Shown here: positions 2,150 through 64,000 of the stretch, in pieces
How positions within the stretch are numbered: the first letter of the stretch is position 1
Layout of the letters: the number at the start of each line of letters is the position of its first letter
Source of the DNA: Caprimulgus europaeus
Lineage: Eukaryota; Chordata; Aves; Caprimulgiformes; Caprimulgidae
Direction of reading: 5' to 3'
Assembly (NCBI GenBank): GCA_907165065.1
Contig: OU015529.1
Span: 9,805,554 to 9,869,553, forward strand
DNA length: 64,000 bases
The notes under the pieces: generated by a model
The model's input: the letters and a program-made list of their open reading frames with translations, nothing else
Told to the model about the DNA's origin: nothing
Database searches by the model: none
Translations under genes and position numbers: made by a program

Positions 2150-2362
2150 GTCAAATACTAGCATGTTTCATTTCAACTAGCTACTGCTAGGCTGGCAAGG
2201 TTTATTTTTTTAAGCTACTTTCACACAAAACCTTTTTCTTACAAAGCAGGAGCCTTTTCTTTAGTTTTCTCTCTCTGGCCTTATAAAGGAGATATCTGCT
2301 GTTTTCAGTTGCCTGAGGTAGGCACAACAAACATGAGTATTCAAGAGGTATTTGAATATCAA

Positions 2363-4155
2363 GATCATAGAATCACAGAATGGTTTGGGCTGGAAGGGAC
2401 CTTAAAGCTCATCCAGTTCCAACCCCCCTGCCAGCAGCAGGGACACCTTCCACTAGACCAGGTTGCTCAAAGCCTCATCCAACCTGGCCTTGAACACTTC
2501 CAGGGAGGAGCAGCCACAGCTTCTCTGGGCAACCTGTTCCAGTGTCTGACCACCCTCACAGGAAAGAATTTCTTCTTAATATCTAAATATTAAATCTAAA
2601 TCTTAATATCATCTAAACCTCCGCTCTTCCAGTTTAAAGCCATTTCCCCTTGTTCTGTCACTCCCTGCCCTTGTAAAAAGCTCCTCCCCAGCCTTCCTGT
2701 AGACCCCCCTCAGGCACTGGAAGGCTGCTAGAAGGTCTCCCTGGAGCCTTCTCTTCTCCAGGCTGAACAGCCCCAACTCTCTCAGCCTGTCCTCACAGCA
2801 GAGGTGCTCCAGCCCTGGGATCATCCTTGTGGCCTCCTCTGGACTCGTTCTAACAGGTCCATGTCTCTCTTGTGCTGGGGGCTCCAGAACTGGACGCAGC
2901 ACTCCAGGTGGGGCCTTATGAGAGCGGAGTAGAGGGGGAGAACCACCTCCCTTGACCTGCTGGCCACACTTCTCTTGATGCAGCCCAGGACACGGTTATT
3001 GGCCTCTGGGCTGCAAGTGCACATTGCCGGCTCATGTTGATCTGCTCATCCACCACCACTCCCAAGTCCTTCTCTTCAGAGCTGGTCTCAAGCCACTCAT
3101 CACCCAGCCTGTATTTATGTTTGGGGTTGCCCCAAGCCAGGTGCAGGACCTTGCATTTGGCCTTGTTGAACTTCATCAGGTTAGCACAGGCCCACCTCTC
3201 AAGCCTGTCAAGGCCCCTCTGGATGATGTCCTGTCCCTCTAGGACGTCAACTGCACCACACAGCTTGGTGTCATCGGCAAACTTGCTGAGGGTGCACTCA
3301 ATGCCCCTGTCCATGTCACTGACAAAGATGCTGAAGGGCACCGGTCCCAATACCAAACCTTGAGGGACACCGCTCATCACCGGTTTCCACTCAGACATGG
3401 AGCTGTTGACCACAGTTGTTTGAGTGCGACCATCCAGCCAGTTCCTTATCCACTGAGTGGTCCATCCATCAAACCCACGTGTTTCCAATTTAGAGACAGG
3501 GATGCCATGCGGAAGGGTGTCAAACGCCTTGCACAAGTCCAGGTAGATGACATCAGTTGCTTTAGCCTTATCCACCAACGTTGTGACCCCATCATAAAAG
3601 GCCATAGGTTTGTCAGGAATTATTTGCCCTTGGTGAAGCCATGCTGGTTGTCACCAATCACTTTCTTGTTCTCCATGGGCCTTAGCATAGTTTCTAGGAG
3701 TATCTGCTCCATGGTCTTGCCTGGCACTGAGGTGAGACTGACCAGCCTGTAGTTCCCCAGGTCTTCCTTGTTACCCTTTTTAAAAATGGGGGTTATGTTC
3801 CCCTTTTTCCAGTCTGTGGGAACTTCACCAGACTGCCAGGACTTCTCAAATATGATAGATAGTGGCTTTGCAGCTTCATCCACCAGTTCCCTCAGGACCC
3901 ATGGATGCATCTCATCAGGTCCCATGGACTTGTGCACCTTCAGATTCTTTAGGTAGTCCTGAACTGTTCTTCTCCTACAGTGGGTGGCTTTTCATTCTCC
4001 TGGACCCTTCCTTTGCTTTCTAGGACTAGGGCAGCGTGGCACAAGGCCTTGTCAGTGTCCCAGGTGACCGGGTCTCCCGTTGCCTTCTGGAGAGGGCCCA
4101 CATTTTCCCTGGTTTTCCTTTTCTCCCCAGCATACCTGTAGAAGCTTTTTTTGCA
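2363..4155 (-). mobile_element. CR1 LINE, 5'-truncated, with decayed reverse transcriptase
   Basis: This is the longest CR1 copy in the window, about 1.8 kb, inserted antisense to CCDC186. Its 3' end is at 2363 (reverse complement of the CCATTCTGTGATTCTATGAT-type end). Reading leftward on the minus strand, the ORF2 reverse transcriptase is recognisable: [19 protein letters not shown] near 3770, [10 protein letters not shown] near 3545, SGVPQG near 3370 and the catalytic FADDTKL near 3270, then the C-terminal [11 protein letters not shown] and [18 protein letters not shown] blocks. The frame shifts at least at about 3610, 3000 and 2860, so it cannot make a working protein. The 5' part (endonuclease, ORF1) is absent, as usual for truncated CR1. 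Confidence 0.93.
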
Positions 4156-7100: not shown

Positions 7101-7305
7101 CTTTTAGAAAAACTTGTGCTGGAGCATTTACTTAAAAGTTAGGCTAGAAAAAGAACAAACTCTGCATAACATTTATATATCTAGATATTTTTGCCCTTTG
7201 AATTTTACTCTCCAGTAGCCTTTCTTTCTCCTTTCTCAATCTTTTTCAAATTTGATTTTGAATATAACATGTTGTGTACTGTGAATTCTAGATTTCCAAA
7301 GGAAA

Positions 7306-26487
<19,182 letters not shown>

Positions 26488-37957: not shown

Positions 37958-39115
37958 ACAGAATAGTGTGATTGGAAAAGACCATTATGATCACCTAGTC
38001 CAACTGTAAACCCAGCATTGCCAAGTTCACCACTAAAGCATGTCACCAAGTACGACATCTACACGTCCTTTAGATACCTCCAGGGATGGTCACTCCATCA
38101 CTTCCCTGAGCAGCCTGTTCCAACACTTGACAACCCTTTCAGTGGAGAATTTTTTCCTAATATCCAACCTAAACCTCCCCTGATGCAACTTAAGGCTGTT
38201 CCCTCTTGTCCCATCACTTGTTATTTGGGAGAAGAGACCAACACCCACCTCTCTCCACCCTCCTTTCAGATAGTTGTAGAGGGTGATAAGGTCTCCCTTC
38301 AGCCTCCTTTTTTCTAGGCTAAACAATCCCAGTTCCCTCAGCCATGAACTCATCACACTTGTACTCCAGACCCTTCCCCAGCTTCATTCCCGTTCTCTGG
38401 ACATGCTCCAGCACCTCCATGTCCTTCTTATAGGGAGGGGCCCAAAACCAAACCCCGCACTTGAGCTGTGGCCAAGTACAAGGGCACAATCACTTCCCTG
38501 GTCCTGCTGGCCACATTATTTCTCATACAGGCCAGGATGCCGTTGGCCTTTTTGGCCATCTGGGCACGCTGCTGGCTCATACTCAGCCGGCTATCGACCA
38601 ACACCCCCAGTCCTTTTCCACCAGGCAGCTCTCCAGCCACTCCTCCCCAAGCCTGTAGTGTTGCATGGGGTTGTTGTGACCCAAGTGCAGGACCCAGCAC
38701 TGAGCCTTGTTGAACCTCATACAGTTGGTTGCAGCCCATCGATCCAGCCTGTCCAAATCCCTCTGCAGAGCCTTCCTACCCTCAAGCAGATCAACACTCC
38801 CACCCAGCTTGGTGTCATCTGTGAATGTACTGAGGGTGCACTCGATCCCCTCATCCAGATCATTGATAAAGATGTTAAACAGGACTGGCCCCAACACTGA
38901 GCCCTGGGGAACACCACTTGTGATCGGCCTCCAGCTGGATTTAGTTCCACTCACCACAACTCTCTGGGCTTGGCCATCCAGCCAGTTTTTACCCAGCGAA
39001 GAGTACATCTGTCTAAGCCTTGCCAGCTTCTCTAGGAGAACGCTGTGGGAGACAGTGAGGGACCTGATCTTACCAAAAGCATCAACAAGGCCTGTCCCTG
39101 AGGGGTCATCCTGAA
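37958..39115 (-). mobile_element. CR1 LINE with partial reverse transcriptase, antisense
   Basis: About 1.16 kb, 5'-truncated. On the minus strand, from 39115 leftward: a thumb-proximal [20 protein letters not shown] segment, [20 protein letters not shown], the catalytic region degraded to FTDDTKLGG (FADDTKLGG expected), then [20 protein letters not shown]. The upstream half of the reverse transcriptase is missing and frames break near 38600. The 3' end is the GATTGGAAAAGACC-type tail at about 37970. Confidence 0.93.
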
Positions 39116-42100
39116 GCAAGCCTGAAGACTGCAGGCTCAGATTTGTAAATTTTTAACTAATTACTTTAAAATCCACCACACTTACAAATCCCGCCAGAAT
39201 AGACCCACCTGGTGAGCAGCACAAGCCAAGAAAGCTGCAGCTCAGCACCAGGACACTACATCTTCCTCCAACAAAAAGCTGGGTAAGGATGTGATGAGTA
39301 TCTTTTAAAAAAAGAAAGAATACACAAAGGACTTTGAGGTCTCTGATCAAGAGATGTCCTACCTGGAGTATAAGCACTGGTGGTTACACTGCGGGTGGGA
39401 GAGAGATGCTGGGTATGTTCTCTAGACTTCTGCTCCATGTTTTTTATAAGTTATGAAAATTTTGTGGTTCCAGCACTACTCATACCAGCAATGCAGGCAG
39501 GTTATAGAACGAGACACAAGAAAATGCAAATGTAGAGCCACACAAAAATATAAACATCCTGGCTCAGACCTAACCCTATATTTTGCTAAAAAGCAGTGAA
39601 AAAGAATGTCTTTATCAGGGTGTAAAAGGCATTTTAGTCACCCAATACAGTTTATTAATGGGATGTGCTTCTGGGGTATCTACTGATGAGCAGTGTTTAT
39701 TATTCATGCTTCACAGCTTCATCTGTATTTTAGACTTTAATATAAACAACACGATGCAACCCCTGATAAGCAGGAGAGGGGAAATGCATAAACAATACAA
39801 GATGTTCCCACCAAAATCTCAGTTCCTCTTAATGCAAAGAGGACCTACAGGACACAGTGTCGCTAGGGCTCAAGTGCAAACATCCCATTCAGCAAGCACT
39901 CCCTCAGATTGGGAAGGAGAGTTCGTCTGGTGTTTTTAAACACAGCCCTCAGTTACCACGTCCTCAGAAGCTCCTGGGTGACCGCCGACCTCACCCTTGG
40001 ACTGGGGAAGTGGGGTGCAGACATGGGTTCATTTGAGGCTGTTTGTGGTGGATGCCAGGCTGGACCCTCAGCGTTGCCCTCGCCCCACGCACGGGCAGCA
40101 ACTCAACAGGGAGGTTCTCAGCAAAGACCTTTCAGTGTGAATCTCCAGATGGGCTCAAACCCAAAGACAAGTCACTTCACACTCTGTCCTGCCCTCCTCT
40201 TCCCTCCACCCCTCTAAAATACCTCTTTGTCTGCAGCTTTGGGACCTACATGTCTGCGGGTGAGAAGGGAGAAGTAGCACCCAGAGTCATCAGGCTACAG
40301 AAAGTACCCAAGAACAAAAGATTGATTTTAATGTCCCAGCTTTGAGCAAGCTTGGCCGTTAGCTTCAGGAAGTCTTCGTTATTTATGCAGAGGAGGAAGC
40401 AGATGGAAATCACAGAATTAATTTGATCTGAAGAGATTTTGTTCTGGAAAAACACACGTGTCAGGCCCCATTACTCAATGTCACAGGCAAAGGGACAGGA
40501 TAAGCCACGTGTGGCCTTTGAGCGTGAGCACGCTGGATGCCCATCAGTGGCATCAGCTGATCCTCAAGCCACAGGCCCAGGTCAGGTTTGCAGGGGGTTG
40601 TGGTGTGTCCCAGGTGGGTGGGCTGGTGGTGGGCAGGGAGCCATCCCTTCTCCACAGTGGTACCCAGAGAGGATGGGCAGGATCAGAAATAACCAGGGGG
40701 AAAAGGGACGAGGGCCTGGAAGGGCAGCTCTGGGCTTCTTCAGGGAAGGAGATCCCATACAGAAGCTGAGTCCTATGGGAGACACAACTCTCCTCTTTCC
40801 AAGGCCCACAGGTGTGAGCTCAGCAGCTTGCATTGCATTTAACATCACAGGTAGCGATGCAAGCCCCGCTTCTCTCCATTGCACAAGAGCAAAACCACGA
40901 GGTGACAGCTACAGTGACAGCTACCCAATATGGAGCTGGGGCTTTGCAGTGCTCTGGGTTCTGTGCAGAGGGTGGTGGAGGTCACAGCAGGCCCTGCTGC
41001 GTTCCTCTCACTTTGAAATTGCTCTTAAAAACATCGAGTTCAAGGATGGTTTATTCTGAGCCCTGTTCCCCATGCTGCAGGCACTGACCCTGGTGGCTTT
41101 TAAAGGGGATGTATCCATGCTCTTTGGCTAAATTAGCTTGTGGGTCCTTGCAGCCAGGAAGTCCACATGGTCTCATAGCTCACATTTAGGATGTTTGCAA
41201 AGACAAATGCAGTGCAGCAGAGACACTGGAGAGAGCTGCAACCTACTTACCATGCTGTAGCTCCTCATTAGAGGCTGCCACTGAGTTGGCAGCTAAAACT
41301 GCTCTTGATATGCACTTACTCCTCCTGCAGGTGATATTGATGGCTTGGTAGGCAAAGAGTTCATTTGAACTTTCCCATCTCAAAAACCAGATACTATGTT
41401 TTGTTGTGTGACAAACAGACACAGGACCTCTCCATGATGCCTCGGTGTCATCTCCACACTCTGCCCCAATCATGCTGCAGTGCAAACCAAGGGCGGGGTT
41501 TGACTTTTGTTCTTAATGCAGAGGAACTCATGAGCAGCAGCTTTTGGGACATCAGAGCCAACAGACTAGTCTAAATGGGGCTGAGGACATGTGTCCCACC
41601 ATGGTTTCGATGACACTGAGAAGACAGGCCAGTGACTAAGTACCAGACTAGGTCAGGGAAGGAGGTTTTTATTTCCCCTTGCAAAATGGGAAAACGTTGC
41701 AGACCACAAAGCCTTGCCTTGCACACTACAGCAGAGTCGAATGCAGAAACGTTCCTCCTGGCCCTTGGCCTGGCACCATGGTGTGCCCAAGCAGTGCCAT
41801 GTTTCTCCATGGATTCTCAGCTCAGCTCTGAGGCCAAATACTCCGTTGCACATGCAATGGAGCCACAAACTTCAGAAGAAAGGTGAACACAATGCACATG
41901 TTTACTACCCTTGTGCTCTGAGCAAGTGTGAATAGGCTACACATTAATCCACATGATAGTGCTGAGGGACTTGTAACATGGTTTGGGTCATGGCCTGTTG
42001 GGCAGTTGTACCTCAGTCTTACTTTCTAGCTCTCCTTTTCCTTGTGCAAGGAGCTGCTGTAGTCCATAGTGGCCAGCCCTCCAACGAGAAGGGGTTTTGC

Positions 42101-44267: not shown

Positions 44268-44632
44268 GCCTAGAAATGAGGGGAGATCTTATAGCAGCCT
44301 TCCAGTACCTGAAGGGGCTACAGGAACGCTGGGGAAGGACTTTTCATAAGGGCAGTTCATGACAGGACAAGGGGTAAGGGCTTTAAGCTGAAAGAGGGGA
44401 GGTTTAGATGAGATATTAGGAAGAAATTCTTCACTGTGAGGGTGGTCAGACACTGGAACAGGTTGCCTAAAGAAGCTGTGGATGCCCCCTCCGTGGAACT
44501 GTTCAAGGCCAGGTTGGATGAGGCTTTGAGCAACCTGGTCTAGTGGAAGGTGTCCCTGCTGATGGCAGGGGGGTTGGAACTGGATGATCTTTAAGGTCCC
44601 TTCCAACCCAAACCATTCTGTGATTCTGTGAA
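44268..44632 (+). mobile_element. CR1 LINE 3' fragment
   Basis: Plus-orientation CR1 3' region of about 365 bases, from GAGGGGAGATCTTATAGCAG through TGAGATATTAGGAAGAAATT to the terminal CCATTCTGTGATTCTGTGA. It is among the least diverged copies here. The ORF2 end is frameshifted and the element carries no enzyme domain. Confidence 0.95.
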
Positions 44633-47600
44633 TTACTGCTACAGAAAACGAGTGCTTTGAAGGGGTGCAGAAAGGGTGCAAGTTTTCTAGCTTTGGACAC
44701 CTACTTGTATGCCAGACCCCAGGAAAGAGCTGTGTTTATGGGAAGGGACATTTTCACATGCCAACAATTTTAATGCGCGCCAGGCCTCGTGCAATTTTTC
44801 TTTCCGTTTCCAATATTATGTATTTTATAGGATAAAGTTTGAAATGCGGCTTTTTGTGCATGAATGATACAGTTTCCATAATATTTTTTCATATGCAGAG
44901 ACATTTTGTTTTGATTTCATGGGGCATGAGTCAACTCCTATTTGAGGCCATTGGAGTCCTTCCAGTGACCTTCCCAGAGCCTGGCTAACTGGGCAGCCAA
45001 GCCCTGACACGTTGTAGGTGTGAGTTAGCACAACCTGCCGAGGCTCAGGGCAGCTCAGAAGAGCAGGTTGATCAAAAAAAGCCCAGATCAGGAAATCATG
45101 CTGACAGCATTCAGCATGCTCAGTGCAAAACCAGAGAAATGCACATGCTGCAGCATCATGAACCCCCCTGGACGTGCCAGCAGCAGTGGGTGCTCAGCCC
45201 TGCAAGATCCCCAAAGTTTGCCAACCAAAGCAGGTACCAAGTCCCTTAATCTCAAGGCTGCAGGAGTCAGGGTGAGCTACAGGATTTATTTGTCTGAGCT
45301 CCTCAAGTGGGACAAACATGACCCTGGGTTGTGTGGATGACACAGACCAGCTCCTGCACCCTCACAAAAGCAGCAGCTCTGTGGAGCTGACTTGGCTGCT
45401 GGGGAGTGCTGCCTGCACCATGATCCATCATTGCACGGCAGAGCTGGGTTCACGCTCCAGCACCACTTCCCATGAGGACCCCTAAGCATGCAAGGGTGCT
45501 TCCCATGAAGACCCTCCAGACCCCACATGGAAGTGAAGGATCCCACACAAATTCAGGCATGTGCCCATCCAGTTTGCATGAATTTTATTCCCCCTTCTTA
45601 AGGACTGTTGGAAGAGTCATTTATTTTTTTGGGGGGAGGAGCAAGTTTTGATGAAGAAATGTCAGGTTCTCCAGTTCAGCAAAATTCTGCCTCAGCTCAG
45701 AAAGGTGCCCCTGTTTTGCAGGGCCAGCAAAGAAGAGAGCACACCCAGACTCTGGAAAACACCCATCAGACCACAAATGAGCAACAAACTCAGGGAGCAT
45801 CCTCACCCTTTACACGGCTCACTCACATCACAGTGGCTCTGTTGTTGATGAAGAGCCAGCGAGGGGTGTTTGTGCCGCCGTGCTCAGCACATGGCATTGC
45901 TGCTGTTGCCCAGAAAGCCGTGGGTGCTGTCAGTAAATGGCATTGTGGAGAGGTTCAGAGCAGGGAGTCAATGAGAAAGGTCCAGCAGGTGGTAGCCTCT
46001 GCTTGGCTCTACTGCCAGCTCTAGCAGGGACCTCGATTGTTCTGCAGGACACAGAGCTGCAGCCCATGTCCACATGGGTGGCTCCTCCACCACCAGCCTG
46101 CTAAGGAAATGGCACATGATTTGGAAATCAAATCTTGTGTTTACGAAACAGCTCCTAAGGGTTTTAAAAAAGGACTAGTGGTGTTTACACACAAGCTGGA
46201 TGGACTCTAACACAGTGCATGCTCTGTTGTGTCAACTCCCACACCTGCATATGATATTTTTAAAAATCCTCATGAAATGAGGGAGCCAAACAACTGAGGC
46301 TGATCCGCCTCCTCTTGATGCTCTCCTTAGAGCCACTTTTTGAACATTTTTGCTAACGGAGCTGTAGGATGCTACAGAAAATCTCTCCAAGGAGCCTCTG
46401 TTCATGTCTGCAGTTAAGGCTGGCCAAAAGCAGGGAGTGGAATTGTAGGGGAGCTGGTGTTGGAGCAGCCTGCTGCAGAGCCTGCTCCCAGGGGTGATGG
46501 AGTGCTCCCTGGGAAGAGGAGAGGACTTGGAGGGATCCCAAGCCTTGCAGTGCTGCAGCCCACTGCCTGCACAGTGCAGGAAGGGGAGACCAGCAGCTCA
46601 GCTAACGCCACCTCCATCCCCTCTTAGGCAACAAGGAGACTCAGACAGAGAAGAACGAAGTTGAAGCACATTTTCTTGTGCTTTCCCAAACTACCAGAAT
46701 TGCCAGATATGCTCTTCACTGTGTGTTTTGGTTTTCTACACCAGGAAGTTTCTTAACCCTTTCTTAGCAACACAAGTTCTTCCATATCACTTGCAGAAGG
46801 TCTTGCCTGGACTGTGTTTGTTTGTAGGATGACACCAGGATTCAGTCCATAAAAGGTTATTGACCTGGGAAGAGAGAGTTTCTAGAATTTAAGGGCTGGG
46901 CAAGTTCTTGGAAATTGTCTTATCAGCATGGCTACAAGCGGGAGCTCTAACAACCCTTCCTGAGCTGCACGTCTCTAGTTCCGATTCCTGCAGTTTGGTG
47001 TTTGTCTCCACACGTATGCTTATTTATGATTTGTTATTTACAACAGCTTTGGGCCAAGATTGACACAAAACTGTGAAGCCAAGCTTGATTGTTTTGCTGT
47101 TACTGAATTCAGGTGTTAGCTAAGTCCCAAAGCAGACCAGGAAAGGGGAGCAGATGTCTCTGCAGAGACACTGCATAAAGGCTGGTGCCGTGCACCTCAC
47201 ATGGTGTCCTCCTTCGCTGGTGGAGAAGGGAATTGCTGGGAGAAGGCAGAGGGCAGGGAGGTGTCAGGGCTTGTTAACAGCAGAGGCACAAGGTGATAAA
47301 ACAGGAACACAGAGGCACTGACTTTGCACAGCAAGGAGTGTCACCAGGATGTATGCTGGTCTCTAAGGGTGGTGGAGGAGAACTGAGGCAATGGATGAGT
47401 GCAGCACTCGGGGGATTTAAAGCAAAACCTGAGGGTACATTAAAGACCACTGGAAGCACGAGTCTGCGCTTGCACAGGGACTTGTTCTGAAGTGTCTCAT
47501 GAAGGGGCTGGTTCACCCTAAGCCCCAGGGGGTCTGCAGTGCCTCAAGCCTTCCCCACTGGCGTGGACCTGGCAGCCCAGCTAGAGCTGCTATCCCTTGT

Positions 47601-60754: not shown

Positions 60755-60776
60755 GCTTGCTTGTGCTGCAATGGTA

Positions 60777-60782
60777 TTTATT
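60777..60782 (-). terminator. Distal polyadenylation signal AATAAA (ADRB1)
   Basis: The plus strand reads TTTATT, giving AATAAA on the minus strand about 290 nt after the remnant tail exon. GTGTCTC-type sequence follows on the minus strand. It is a candidate end for the longest ADRB1 transcript. Confidence 0.45.
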
Positions 60783-61068
60783 GCACATAGACCAATTACT
60801 TACACAGTAGTAAATTGCACCAGAGTATAAATATGTTATAAAACACACACAGAGAGGCAAATGGAAATGACACACAAGTGCTAAAATAACAGCAGACTCA
60901 CGTGGGCACTTGGAAATAAAAATAAAAATAATAAAATTCCCTTAAGATATTTTAATTTATAATTTGGATATATTTACAGTACCTTCATAAAATAATATTA
61001 AAAAAGTCACTCTCTTAATAAAACTATAACAGACCAGACAAAAACAGAAATCAGTTTCAGGGTTGGTG

Positions 61069-61243
61069 TTATTCAAACCTCCGTTTCGTTTTTAATTTGC
61101 GCGTGTGTACGTGTGTGCAAGTAACATCTTCAAATAACTTTACAACTCTTAACACTGTGCAAAAAACGGCTTCGTTGCCATCTTTAAAAAAATGTGCAGT
61201 AAATTTTTGTTGTTGCCAGGATTTTTTTCTCCCCCTTGTTCAT
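61069..61243 (-). other. ADRB1: Remnant of the avian alternative last exon of ADRB1, frameshifted
   Basis: On the minus strand a TTCATTGTAATTACAG acceptor (AG at 61244-61245) is followed by ATG at 61243 and a 19-codon frame containing KKILATTKIYCTF, ending in TAA at 61184-61186. It matches the start of the turkey beta-1 receptor long tail (ILATT, YCTF; remembered). After the stop, homology resumes in another frame at 61179 (AVFCTVLRVVKLFEDVTCT) and ends at TAA 61069-61071; about 26 of 36 codons match the remembered turkey tail. The shift is explained by one extra T in a T7 run. The donor would be AAG|GTATAG at 62162/62161, phase 0, so the V and TAG that end the short form are themselves the intron start. 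Spliced as is, it would give a 444-residue receptor lacking the PDZ ligand. Confidence 0.75.
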
Positions 61244-61359
61244 CTGTAATTACAATGAACAAGCTGCAGAAGGCTCCTCACACACCCTCCCCCCTCCTCC
61301 CTTTTCATAAAATACTATTAGTGGTATGTAAATACGCTGTTTAATATAAACATGGTCCG

Positions 61360-61365
61360 TTTATT
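61360..61365 (-). terminator. Polyadenylation signal AATAAA in the ADRB1 optional intron
   Basis: AATAAA on the minus strand lies between the main coding exon and the tail-exon remnant. Use of it would give the unspliced short receptor with about 800 nt of 3' UTR. Confidence 0.35.
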
Positions 61366-61989
61366 CCCCTGTACAATATGCACAGTTTGAGGTAGAAGTT
61401 TCCCAGCCTGACTGCTATTGTCTGGCCGAAGGAGATAAGCACAGTAACTCACTGCTCGCTGATGCAGAGAGAAAACACACACCAGTGTGGGCTGGGGTTT
61501 TTTATACCCCCTTCCAAAACATACCTGCGCTCCCCATTACTCATTCTTTTCCTCCATCGCTACTCCATGGAAGAGGGGAGCACAGCTACTCCGAGCTTAA
61601 CACTCAGCTTGCCCACAGGTCCGTACTCTGTGCCTGTGGCACCTGCAGCACAGACCCCCACGCTGTCTCCCCAAAAACTGCCTGGTGCTGGGGGTGAGGG
61701 AACAAAACCCGGGGTGTCCGACAGCCCTGGGTGAGATGGGGGACAGCTGGCACCCCAGCTGCACCCGGACAAAGGGCAGCAGCTCCACGCTCAGGTTCAA
61801 CCACAGTCCCGGGACAAGTGAGCCGAGCGAAGGGCGCTGCCGCCACAGCCCCTTCCGAAAGCGCCTCTCCTAAAGAGCAGCGGGCTGTCCTGGGGACGGA
61901 CGGGTGGTTGTTGTCTTTGTTCTCCGGTCAGTGCGTTTCCTGTTTGCTGTAGTTTCGGATGAGGTATGTCGTACACCAGTTCACCTGCT

Positions 61990-62155: not shown

Positions 62156-63436
62156 CTATACCTTGGACTCCGAATCGGACGTTTTGCTATTTCTCTCCTC
62201 CAGGCTGGACTCGCTGCCTCCCCGCGTGCCCCCGTTGCAGTCGGACCAGGTCCCTCCCAGGCTGCGCTCGGGGGAGCCCACGGTGCTGATGAAGCCCCCG
62301 GGCAGCCGGGCCAGCTCCCCACCGCTGGCGTGCAGCCGCCGGTCAGCTTTCCGGGGACAGCAGAGCAGCCTCTTGAAGGCCTTACGGAAGTCGGGGCTGC
62401 GGCAGTAGATGATGGGGTTGAAAGCGGAGTTGGCGTAGCCCAGCCAGTTGAAGAAAACGAAGAGCCAGTCCGGCACCAGGTCCCTGTTGAAGACATTGAC
62501 AATGTTCACCAGGAAGAAAGGGAGCCAGCAAAGGGTGAACACCCCCATGATGATGCCCAAAGTCTTGAGGGCTTTCTGCTCCTTCATGGCCATGATGCGG
62601 GGGGTCTTCCGCTTGCTGGCTCGGCCGTTGCCGAGGATGGGCTGGTGGTGAGGGTGAGGGGGCGACTGCGACTGCTCGTGGCTGCCATAGAACCGGCCCT
62701 CGCACCTGTCGATCTTCCTGATCTGCTCCTTGGCCTCTCTGTACACCCTGATGTACACAAAGATCATGATGAGGAGGGGGATGTAGAAAGAAATGATGGA
62801 CGAGGCGATGGCGTAAGCCCTGTTGGTGACAAAGTCACAGCAGCCCGGATCCTGGTAGCACTCCAACGCCTGGGGGTCCTCATCCCGCCACCAATGCATC
62901 ATGATGGGCAAGAAGGAGACCAGGGCAGAGATGGCCCAGACGGTGCAGATGATGCCCTTGGCTCGACCCTTGGTCATGAGGCTCTGGTAGCGGAAAGGCG
63001 AGGTGATGGCCAGGTAGCGGTCGATGGCGATGACGCACAAGGTCTCGATGCTGGCCGTCACGCAGAGCACATCCAGGGAGGTCCAGCATTCGCAGAGGAA
63101 GGATCCCCAGAGCCAAGTGCCCCGCACCACCAGCGTGGCCCCGAAGGGAACCACCAGCAGCCCCATCACCAGGTCAGCGCAGGCCAGTGAGGTGATGAAG
63201 AGATTGGTGAGGGTCTGCAGCCGCTGCGTACGCCCGATGGCCGCGATCACCAGCACGTTACCAGCCACGATAAGCAACACCACCAGTGCCATCAGCAAGC
63301 TCATCCCCACCACCCACTGCTGCGACAGCAGCTCTCCAGCCAGCTGCCTGCTCCCGGGCGGCGCCGCCGTCACCCCGCTGCCGGCCACGGAGCGGTTGTG
63401 GGGGCCGCAGTCGGGCGGCAGCCACCCATCGCCCAT
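62156..63436 (-). CDS. ADRB1: Beta-1 adrenergic receptor
   Basis: A 426-residue class A GPCR of the plasma membrane that binds adrenaline and noradrenaline and couples through Gs to adenylyl cyclase. Seen: N-glycosylation site N14-R-S; seven membrane segments starting near residue 44; amine-binding D122 (3.32); catechol-binding S212, S213 and S216; N330 (7.39); disulfide cysteines C115/C200 and C193/C199; DRY 139-141; CWLP 303-306; NPIIY 340-344; palmitoylation cysteines C359/C360; terminal ESKV, a class I PDZ ligand shared with human. R356 aligns with the polymorphic human Arg389. The transmembrane core is near identical to turkey beta-1, while residues 17-43 differ. The ATG at 63436 has G at -3 and +4. 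No coding intron interrupts the main exon, as in other ADRB1 genes. The V-stop end overlaps a splice donor (AAG|GTATAG). Confidence 0.98.
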
Positions 63437-63801: not shown

Positions 63802-64000
63802 CTGGGGAGGGACTTTTGACAAGGGCAGGGAGTGACAGAACAAGGGGAAATGGCGTTAAACTGCAAGAGGGAACGTTTAGATGAGATCTGAGGAAGAAAT
63901 TCTTCACTGTGGGGGTGGTCAGACACTGGAACAGGTTGCCCAGAGAAGCTGTGGCTGCTCCTCCCTGGAAGTGTTCAAGGCCAGGTTGGATGAGGCTTTG
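63802..64000 (+). mobile_element. CR1 LINE 3' fragment running off the window edge
   Basis: From GCTGGGGAGGGACTTTTGAC through GAGATCTGAGGAAGAAATTC, GGTCAGACACTGGAACAGGT and GTTCAAGGCCAGGTTGGATG this follows the CR1 3' region on the plus strand, so it points away from ADRB1. The 3' end lies beyond the window. It begins about 370 bp upstream of the ADRB1 start codon. Confidence 0.95.

What the first reader, a model, noticed from the sequence alone, without database searches (positions are those of the whole stretch)
61069..61243. A frameshifted relic (or mis-assembled copy) of the bird-specific long-tail exon of the beta-1 receptor
Seen: acceptor, 19 codons matching the turkey long tail, a stop inside ACA TTT TTT TAA, then about 36 codons of further homology in another frame. 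Exactly one extra base in a T7 run accounts for the shift. Known (from memory): in turkey this exon is alternatively spliced and its tail keeps the receptor from being internalised and down-regulated. Inference: in this bird the long isoform is lost or shortened to 444 residues without the PDZ ligand, so receptor trafficking would differ from turkey. A homopolymer sequencing error is the main competing explanation.
Basis: partly seen in the sequence, partly recalled or inferred. Interest (0 to 1): 0.82.

Follow-up and report, generated by a model that had tools for sequence, protein, structure and literature searches.

The report
Conserved receptor 3'UTR, not proven relic
In this bird the stretch that resembles the turkey beta-1 receptor's long tail is most likely ordinary, conserved untranslated sequence at the end of the receptor's message, so the broken reading frame need not mean that anything was lost.

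Summary
The sequence facts hold. An intact single-exon ADRB1 gene (63436-62156, minus, 426 aa, ending in ESKV) is followed by a possible acceptor at 61243, 19 codons like the turkey long tail, a stop in ACA TTT TTT TAA, and 40 tail-like codons in the +1 frame. It is the only matching place found in a 1.18 Gb assembly, so not a second copy. The "relic exon" reading is not established. [quoted passage not shown] A human 3'UTR recalled from memory (scores 143 on the 145 printed bases) continues in order through the "exon" (61165-61114) to the poly(A) signal. In that block substitutions show no codon pattern (4/17, 3/17, 3/18), and the open stretch is not unusually long (358 of 3000 shuffles). Splice signals are better than about 91-93% of GT/AG sites but far from consensus. 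The resemblance to turkey is explained by 3'UTR conservation; gain in turkey or loss here needs other birds.

The parts
62156..63436 (-). ADRB1 coding sequence, single exon, 426 aa, C-terminus ESKV (type 1 PDZ ligand)
   Evidence: PDB beta-1 chains match best (E 7.2e-184); 391 of 423 aligned residues equal to recalled turkey; ESKV as the human PDZ ligand from passages of PMC3656048
62156..62164 (-). AAG GTA TAG: last Lys-Val-stop codons; also reads as a weak splice donor AAG|GTATAG
   Evidence: donor score 4.54 against 12.68 for consensus; 18th best of 150 GT sites at 63430-60760; 291 of 3228 GT sites of the strand score as high or higher
61314..61412 (-). conserved ADRB1 3'UTR block that holds the let-7 site; inside the supposed intron
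   Evidence: [quoted passage not shown] 0 of 2000 shuffles for each
61388..61395 (-). let-7 8-base site CTACCTCA
   Evidence: position, occurs once; mean 0.012 per shuffle of the UTR; luciferase test in human and rat 3'UTR in PMC4124018 and PMC5352438 (passages)
61222..61276 (-). predicted hairpin that holds the putative acceptor AG
   Evidence: -17.2 kcal/mol, z -3.24, 0 of 200 shuffles; picked after the fact. The 371-base stretch around it: z -1.64, 4 of 100 shuffles
61069..61243 (-). stretch like the turkey long-tail exon: 19 codons in frame 0, stop at TTT TTT TAA, then 40 tail-like codons in the +1 frame
61186..61192 (-). T7 run next to the frame change
61114..61165 (-). conserved 3'UTR block inside the 'exon'
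   Evidence: 42 of 52 bases equal to recalled human 3'UTR, 0 of 2000 shuffles; substitutions by codon position 4/17, 3/17, 3/18
61150..61163 (-). TTTGCACAGTGTTA: overlapping miR-19 and miR-141/200a seed matches (seeds recalled)
   Evidence: the two 8-mers occur 0.07 and 0.034 times per UTR shuffle on average; motifs chosen after seeing them
60762..61003 (-). conserved 3' end of the ADRB1 3'UTR
   Evidence: 82% identity to recalled human 3'UTR over 244 columns
60777..60782 (-). poly(A) signal AATAAA
   Evidence: the third of three AATAAA in the UTR; inside the conserved end block

Best explanation
The stretch is part of the conserved 3' untranslated region of ADRB1. The gene makes the short, ESKV-ending receptor from one exon, followed by about 1.4 kb of 3'UTR with conserved blocks (let-7 site; miR-19 / miR-141/200a seed matches; poly(A) end) that act on the RNA. 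The turkey long tail reads through the homologue of this UTR, so its resemblance to the window is UTR conservation, not proof of a lost exon. Shown: intact short form, one place in the genome, let-7 block homology to printed mammalian 3'UTR, no open tail frame here. Shown only with recalled human sequence: homology through the 'exon' and the lack of codon pattern. Inferred: that the microRNA sites work in this bird, and that turkey gained the frame.
For: [quoted passage not shown] The recalled human 3'UTR scores 143 against the 145-base printed part and puts the let-7 site at 707 (paper: 704-711). It gives three collinear blocks 61412-61314, 61165-61114 and 61003-60762. No codon pattern in the middle block. 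T6 here against T5 in recalled human just before that block (by eye) is a further frame-changing difference. The open stretch of 56 codons is reached by 358 of 3000 shuffles. Tail divergence from recalled turkey is 16 of 54 residues against 8 of 63 in the shared C-tail (Fisher p 0.037) and 32 of 423 in the whole CDS (p 1e-5).
Against: In the recalled human piece, one of three frames is also open for 40 codons and reads similar residues (CTVL....EDVTCT): openness without known coding there, but it could be read the other way. Donor and acceptor, though weak, rank in the top 9.0% and 7.3% of GT and AG sites of the strand. Turkey shows (recalled) that the same stretch can be spliced and translated, so it may have been coding in an ancestor of both birds. 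The frame 0 part keeps ILATT..YCTF, outside the human-aligned block.
Confidence: 0.73

Rival explanations
1. Relic: the long-tail exon was coding in an ancestor of this bird and of turkey, and one base gained here broke it.
For: Both halves match the recalled turkey tail strongly; acceptor and donor are still present and rank in the top 7-9% of sites; one net base accounts for the shift.
Against: The stretch lies in conserved 3'UTR; no codon pattern against recalled human; at least 0.123 nonsynonymous changes per base against 0.048 for the shared C-tail and 0.026 for the whole CDS. The direction of the change is unknown.
Confidence: 0.18
2. Sequencing or assembly error: reads have six Ts and the long frame is open in this bird.
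For: The change sits at a T7 run; no reads could be seen.
Against: Assembly of 1.18 Gb in 121 contigs; 36 of 37 receptor stretches at E up to 1e-20 without a stop (98 of 639 candidates scored, several rows belong to one gene, and the 37th may only run past its own stop); window CDS intact. A T7 run is short for such errors (recalled).
Confidence: 0.07
3. Programmed +1 frameshift at TTT TTT TAA (phenylalanine tRNA slips forward at a slow stop) keeps the long tail alive.
For: TTT re-pairs perfectly in the +1 frame before TAA, and the +1 frame is open for 40 tail-like codons.
Against: No stimulatory element was sought beyond simple folds; the following stretch 61110-61170 folds worse than 199 of 200 shuffles; tail residues diverge fast.
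Confidence: 0.02

Closest known systems
Mammalian ADRB1 3'UTR with its let-7 site (PMC4124018, PMC5352438; passages read)
   Same: Same gene, same let-7 site, same following TTTATATTAA(ACAGC) block; with recalled human sequence, the same order of blocks to the poly(A) signal
   Different: Blocks carry about 18-21% changes, and the stretch with the possible acceptor did not align; function not tested in birds
Turkey beta-1 receptor long tail (P07700, recalled; Parker and Ross 1991, title seen in the PMC10085991 reference list; [quoted passage not shown]
   Same: Residue similarity in two frames, same position downstream of ESK
Human beta-1 receptor ending in ESKV (PMC3656048; passages read)
   Same: Same C-terminal PDZ ligand
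   Different: 426 residues here against 477 in the human chains

Membership tests
ADRB1 orthologue | Best match to solved beta-1 receptors, above beta-2 and beta-3 | tested here: met
   best beta-1 chain at E 7.2e-184, best beta-2 at 7.4e-135, best beta-3 at 7.8e-113
ADRB1 orthologue | C-terminal ESKV PDZ ligand | tested here: met
Conserved ADRB1 3'UTR | let-7 site block homologous to printed mammalian 3'UTR | tested here: met
Conserved ADRB1 3'UTR | Collinear homology through the tail stretch to the poly(A) end | tested here: inconclusive
Functional turkey-type long-tail exon | Open reading frame through the tail | tested here: not met
   (one TAA)
Functional turkey-type long-tail exon | Strong donor and acceptor | tested here: inconclusive
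   donor 18th of 150 GT sites in the gene and top 9.0% of the strand; acceptor 9th in the list of AG sites at 62100-60760 and top 7.3% of the strand; matrices recalled
Functional turkey-type long-tail exon | Spliced transcript 62162 to 61243 | not testable with these tools
   No RNA data
Relic exon | Frame open in sister lineages | not testable with these tools
   No other bird genome was found to be held; others (viral contigs; genome contigs, one pattern) gave no vertebrate ADRB1

The most novel reading that the evidence does not exclude
The turkey long tail is a young protein extension made by exonising a conserved microRNA-bearing 3'UTR. One splice choice at the Lys-Val-stop codons (AAG|GTATAG) would switch three things at once: it removes the PDZ ligand, adds the tail, and cuts the let-7 site out with the intron while the miR-19 / miR-141/200a sites become codons. 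In this bird the switch is absent or was lost.
Probability: 0.3. Interest if true: 0.55.

Novelty: new member of a known kind. Interest (0 to 1): 0.33.

Why it matters
If the tail is read from a conserved regulatory 3'UTR, it may be a lineage-limited addition, many birds might carry only the PDZ-ending form as mammals do, and similarity of an 'exon' across birds would not by itself show that it is coding. It also makes a clear test possible across bird genomes.

Tried and rejected
Rejected: mis-assembled or duplicated copy (one place each at high identity; the control, the pattern read backwards, had 2 places). Rejected: chance resemblance. Nowhere: turkey tail in PDB (only E 0.59 and 1.5); Rfam on the window at gathering scores (none); tRNAs (none); ADRB1 protein in viral contigs (one stretch matched a pattern, none confirmed) and one block pattern in genome contigs (none); Pfam on three open pieces of the neighbour gene (no family above its cut-off). 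Paper searches aimed at the turkey splice forms listed 0 of 0, 3 of 3, 15 of 631, 30 of 48 and 5 of 6 papers; by title and abstract none listed was about the spliced tail, and I opened two of them (PMC10085991, PMC4403299; passages). One search (3'UTR, AUF1) gave none. Twelve sequence fragments were searched in papers: one search listed 8 papers, two of them useful, both for the let-7 block; one search listed one trout paper that holds the 14-mer GCACAGTGTTAAGA, which I did not open. miR-19a and ADRB1: a listing of 20 papers, then only a title in the reference list of PMC6311877; that paper is not held. Passages of PMC9821655, PMC7866753 and PMC10889313 added nothing on the tail.

Full report
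What is there. The minus strand carries an intact, single-exon beta-1 adrenergic receptor gene, 63436-62156, of 426 residues ending in ESKV. Solved beta-1 receptors are its best PDB matches (E 7.2e-184) and Pfam gives 7tm_1. Spliced, this would give 444 residues.

More than chance. The two halves score 61 and 141 against the recalled turkey tail; 0 of 5000 residue shuffles reach either score, and they are the best two of the stop-to-stop segments of 8 or more residues in the window's six frames. The tail finds one place in the window's own genome of 1,177,730,439 bases in 121 contigs. The DNA of the stretch and the inner block (up to 2 mismatches; 2 places for the backward control) were each found once. 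The next closest receptors in the genome are 66% and 62% identical. So it is not a second or mis-assembled copy.

What it is. [quoted passage not shown] passages read). They align to 61412-61341 and 61396-61314 of the window, with scores 57 and 74; none of 2000 shuffles of each reaches this, and window 1-60600 gives at most 28. The tested let-7 site CTACCTCA stands at 61395-61388. This block lies about 70 bases upstream of the supposed exon, inside the supposed intron. It is therefore 3'UTR by homology to mammals.

Does the UTR homology run through the 'exon'? Over the printed part it scores 143 for 145 bases, and it puts the let-7 site at 707 where the paper says 704-711, so it is a fair but not certain stand-in. 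It gives three blocks in the same order in both: 61412-61314, 61165-61114 and 61003-60762. The last holds the poly(A) signal (AATAAA 60782-60777). The middle one is the only part of the 'exon' that aligned, 52 of 175 bases. It corresponds to the turkey residues from FCTVL to DATCT. The other hits in that listing are weaker (E 0.002 and above), by eye mostly T- or A-rich runs; one, 62008-61916 (E 0.25), is also collinear.

Coding or not. In the middle block the ten human-window changes fall 4 of 17, 3 of 17 and 3 of 18 on codon positions 1, 2 and 3, so there is no codon pattern. One frame of the recalled human piece is open for 40 codons too, and reads CTVL and EDVTCT. As human ADRB1 is known as a one-exon gene ending in ESKV (recalled), I take this as a sign that such stretches stay open without coding, but it could be read the other way. 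The longest open stretch in the window, 56 codons, is matched or beaten by 358 of 3000 shuffles of the 175 bases. Against turkey, 16 of 54 tail residues differ, compared with 8 of 63 in the shared C-tail (p 0.037) and 32 of 423 in the whole receptor (p 1e-5). The least number of amino-acid-changing base changes is 0.123 per base, against 0.048 for the C-tail and 0.026 for the whole CDS. This does not prove that the tail was never translated, but it does not look like a protein under strong selection. Numbers that involve turkey beyond the crystallised core rest on memory.

Splicing. By recalled frequency matrices the donor scores 4.54 (consensus 12.68) and is 18th of 150 GT sites in the gene. 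The acceptor scores 5.99 and is 9th in the list of AG sites at 62100-60760. Against all GT and AG sites of the strand they are in the top 9.0% (291 of 3228) and 7.3% (342 of 4689), so the intron is not ruled out. The acceptor is also predicted to sit in a hairpin (-17.2 kcal/mol, z -3.24, 0 of 200 shuffles), which I noticed after the fact; the 371 bases around it fold only slightly better than shuffles (z -1.64, 4 of 100). Use of this intron in this bird is unproven.

Mechanism. The likeliest working picture is the ordinary one: the short receptor with its ESKV PDZ ligand (the human one binds SAP97 and others; PMC3656048 passages), and a 3'UTR that tunes its message through let-7 and perhaps miR-19 and miR-141/200a. 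The seed matches TTTGCACA and CAGTGTTA overlap at 61163-61150 and are rare in shuffles (0.07 and 0.034 per UTR), but I chose them after seeing them and the seeds are recalled. That miR-19a targets ADRB1 was seen only as a title in a reference list.

Relic or new gain. One net base separates the turkey frame from this one, but its exact place and its direction are unknown. I found no other bird sequence in the collections scanned. Conservation of the stretch as 3'UTR makes gain in turkey's line at least as good an account. A read error is possible but not needed: 36 of 37 receptor stretches found in this assembly at E up to 1e-20 have no stop (98 of 639 candidates were scored).

Verdict. The interpretation as a lost exon is not established and is less likely than conserved 3'UTR. 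It is interesting mainly because it suggests that the turkey tail is a UTR-derived addition whose splice choice would also remove the let-7 site.

Noticed in passing
61222-61276 (-): The putative acceptor AG lies in a predicted hairpin (9-bp perfect stem CUUGUUCAU / AUGAACAAG); z -3.24. It could hide the acceptor.
   Followed up: partly
62156-62164 (-): The codons for the end of the PDZ ligand and the stop (AAG GTA TAG) double as a weak 5' splice site; recalled human AAG GTG TAG scores alike (4.41 against 4.54).
   Followed up: partly
7285-25806 (+): Open pieces of a coiled-coil-like gene, CCDC186-like by recall (a neighbour of ADRB1 in human, recalled); Pfam gave no family above its cut-off for three pieces.
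   Followed up: partly
2162-3991, 38428-39152, 44289-44735, 63830-64000: CR1-like LINE remnants, named by recall and by eye from open stretches (the 63.9 kb one).
   Followed up: no
61163-61150 (-): Overlapping miR-19 and miR-141/200a seed matches, TTTGCACAGTGTTA, in the block of the 'exon' that aligns with recalled human 3'UTR.
   Followed up: partly
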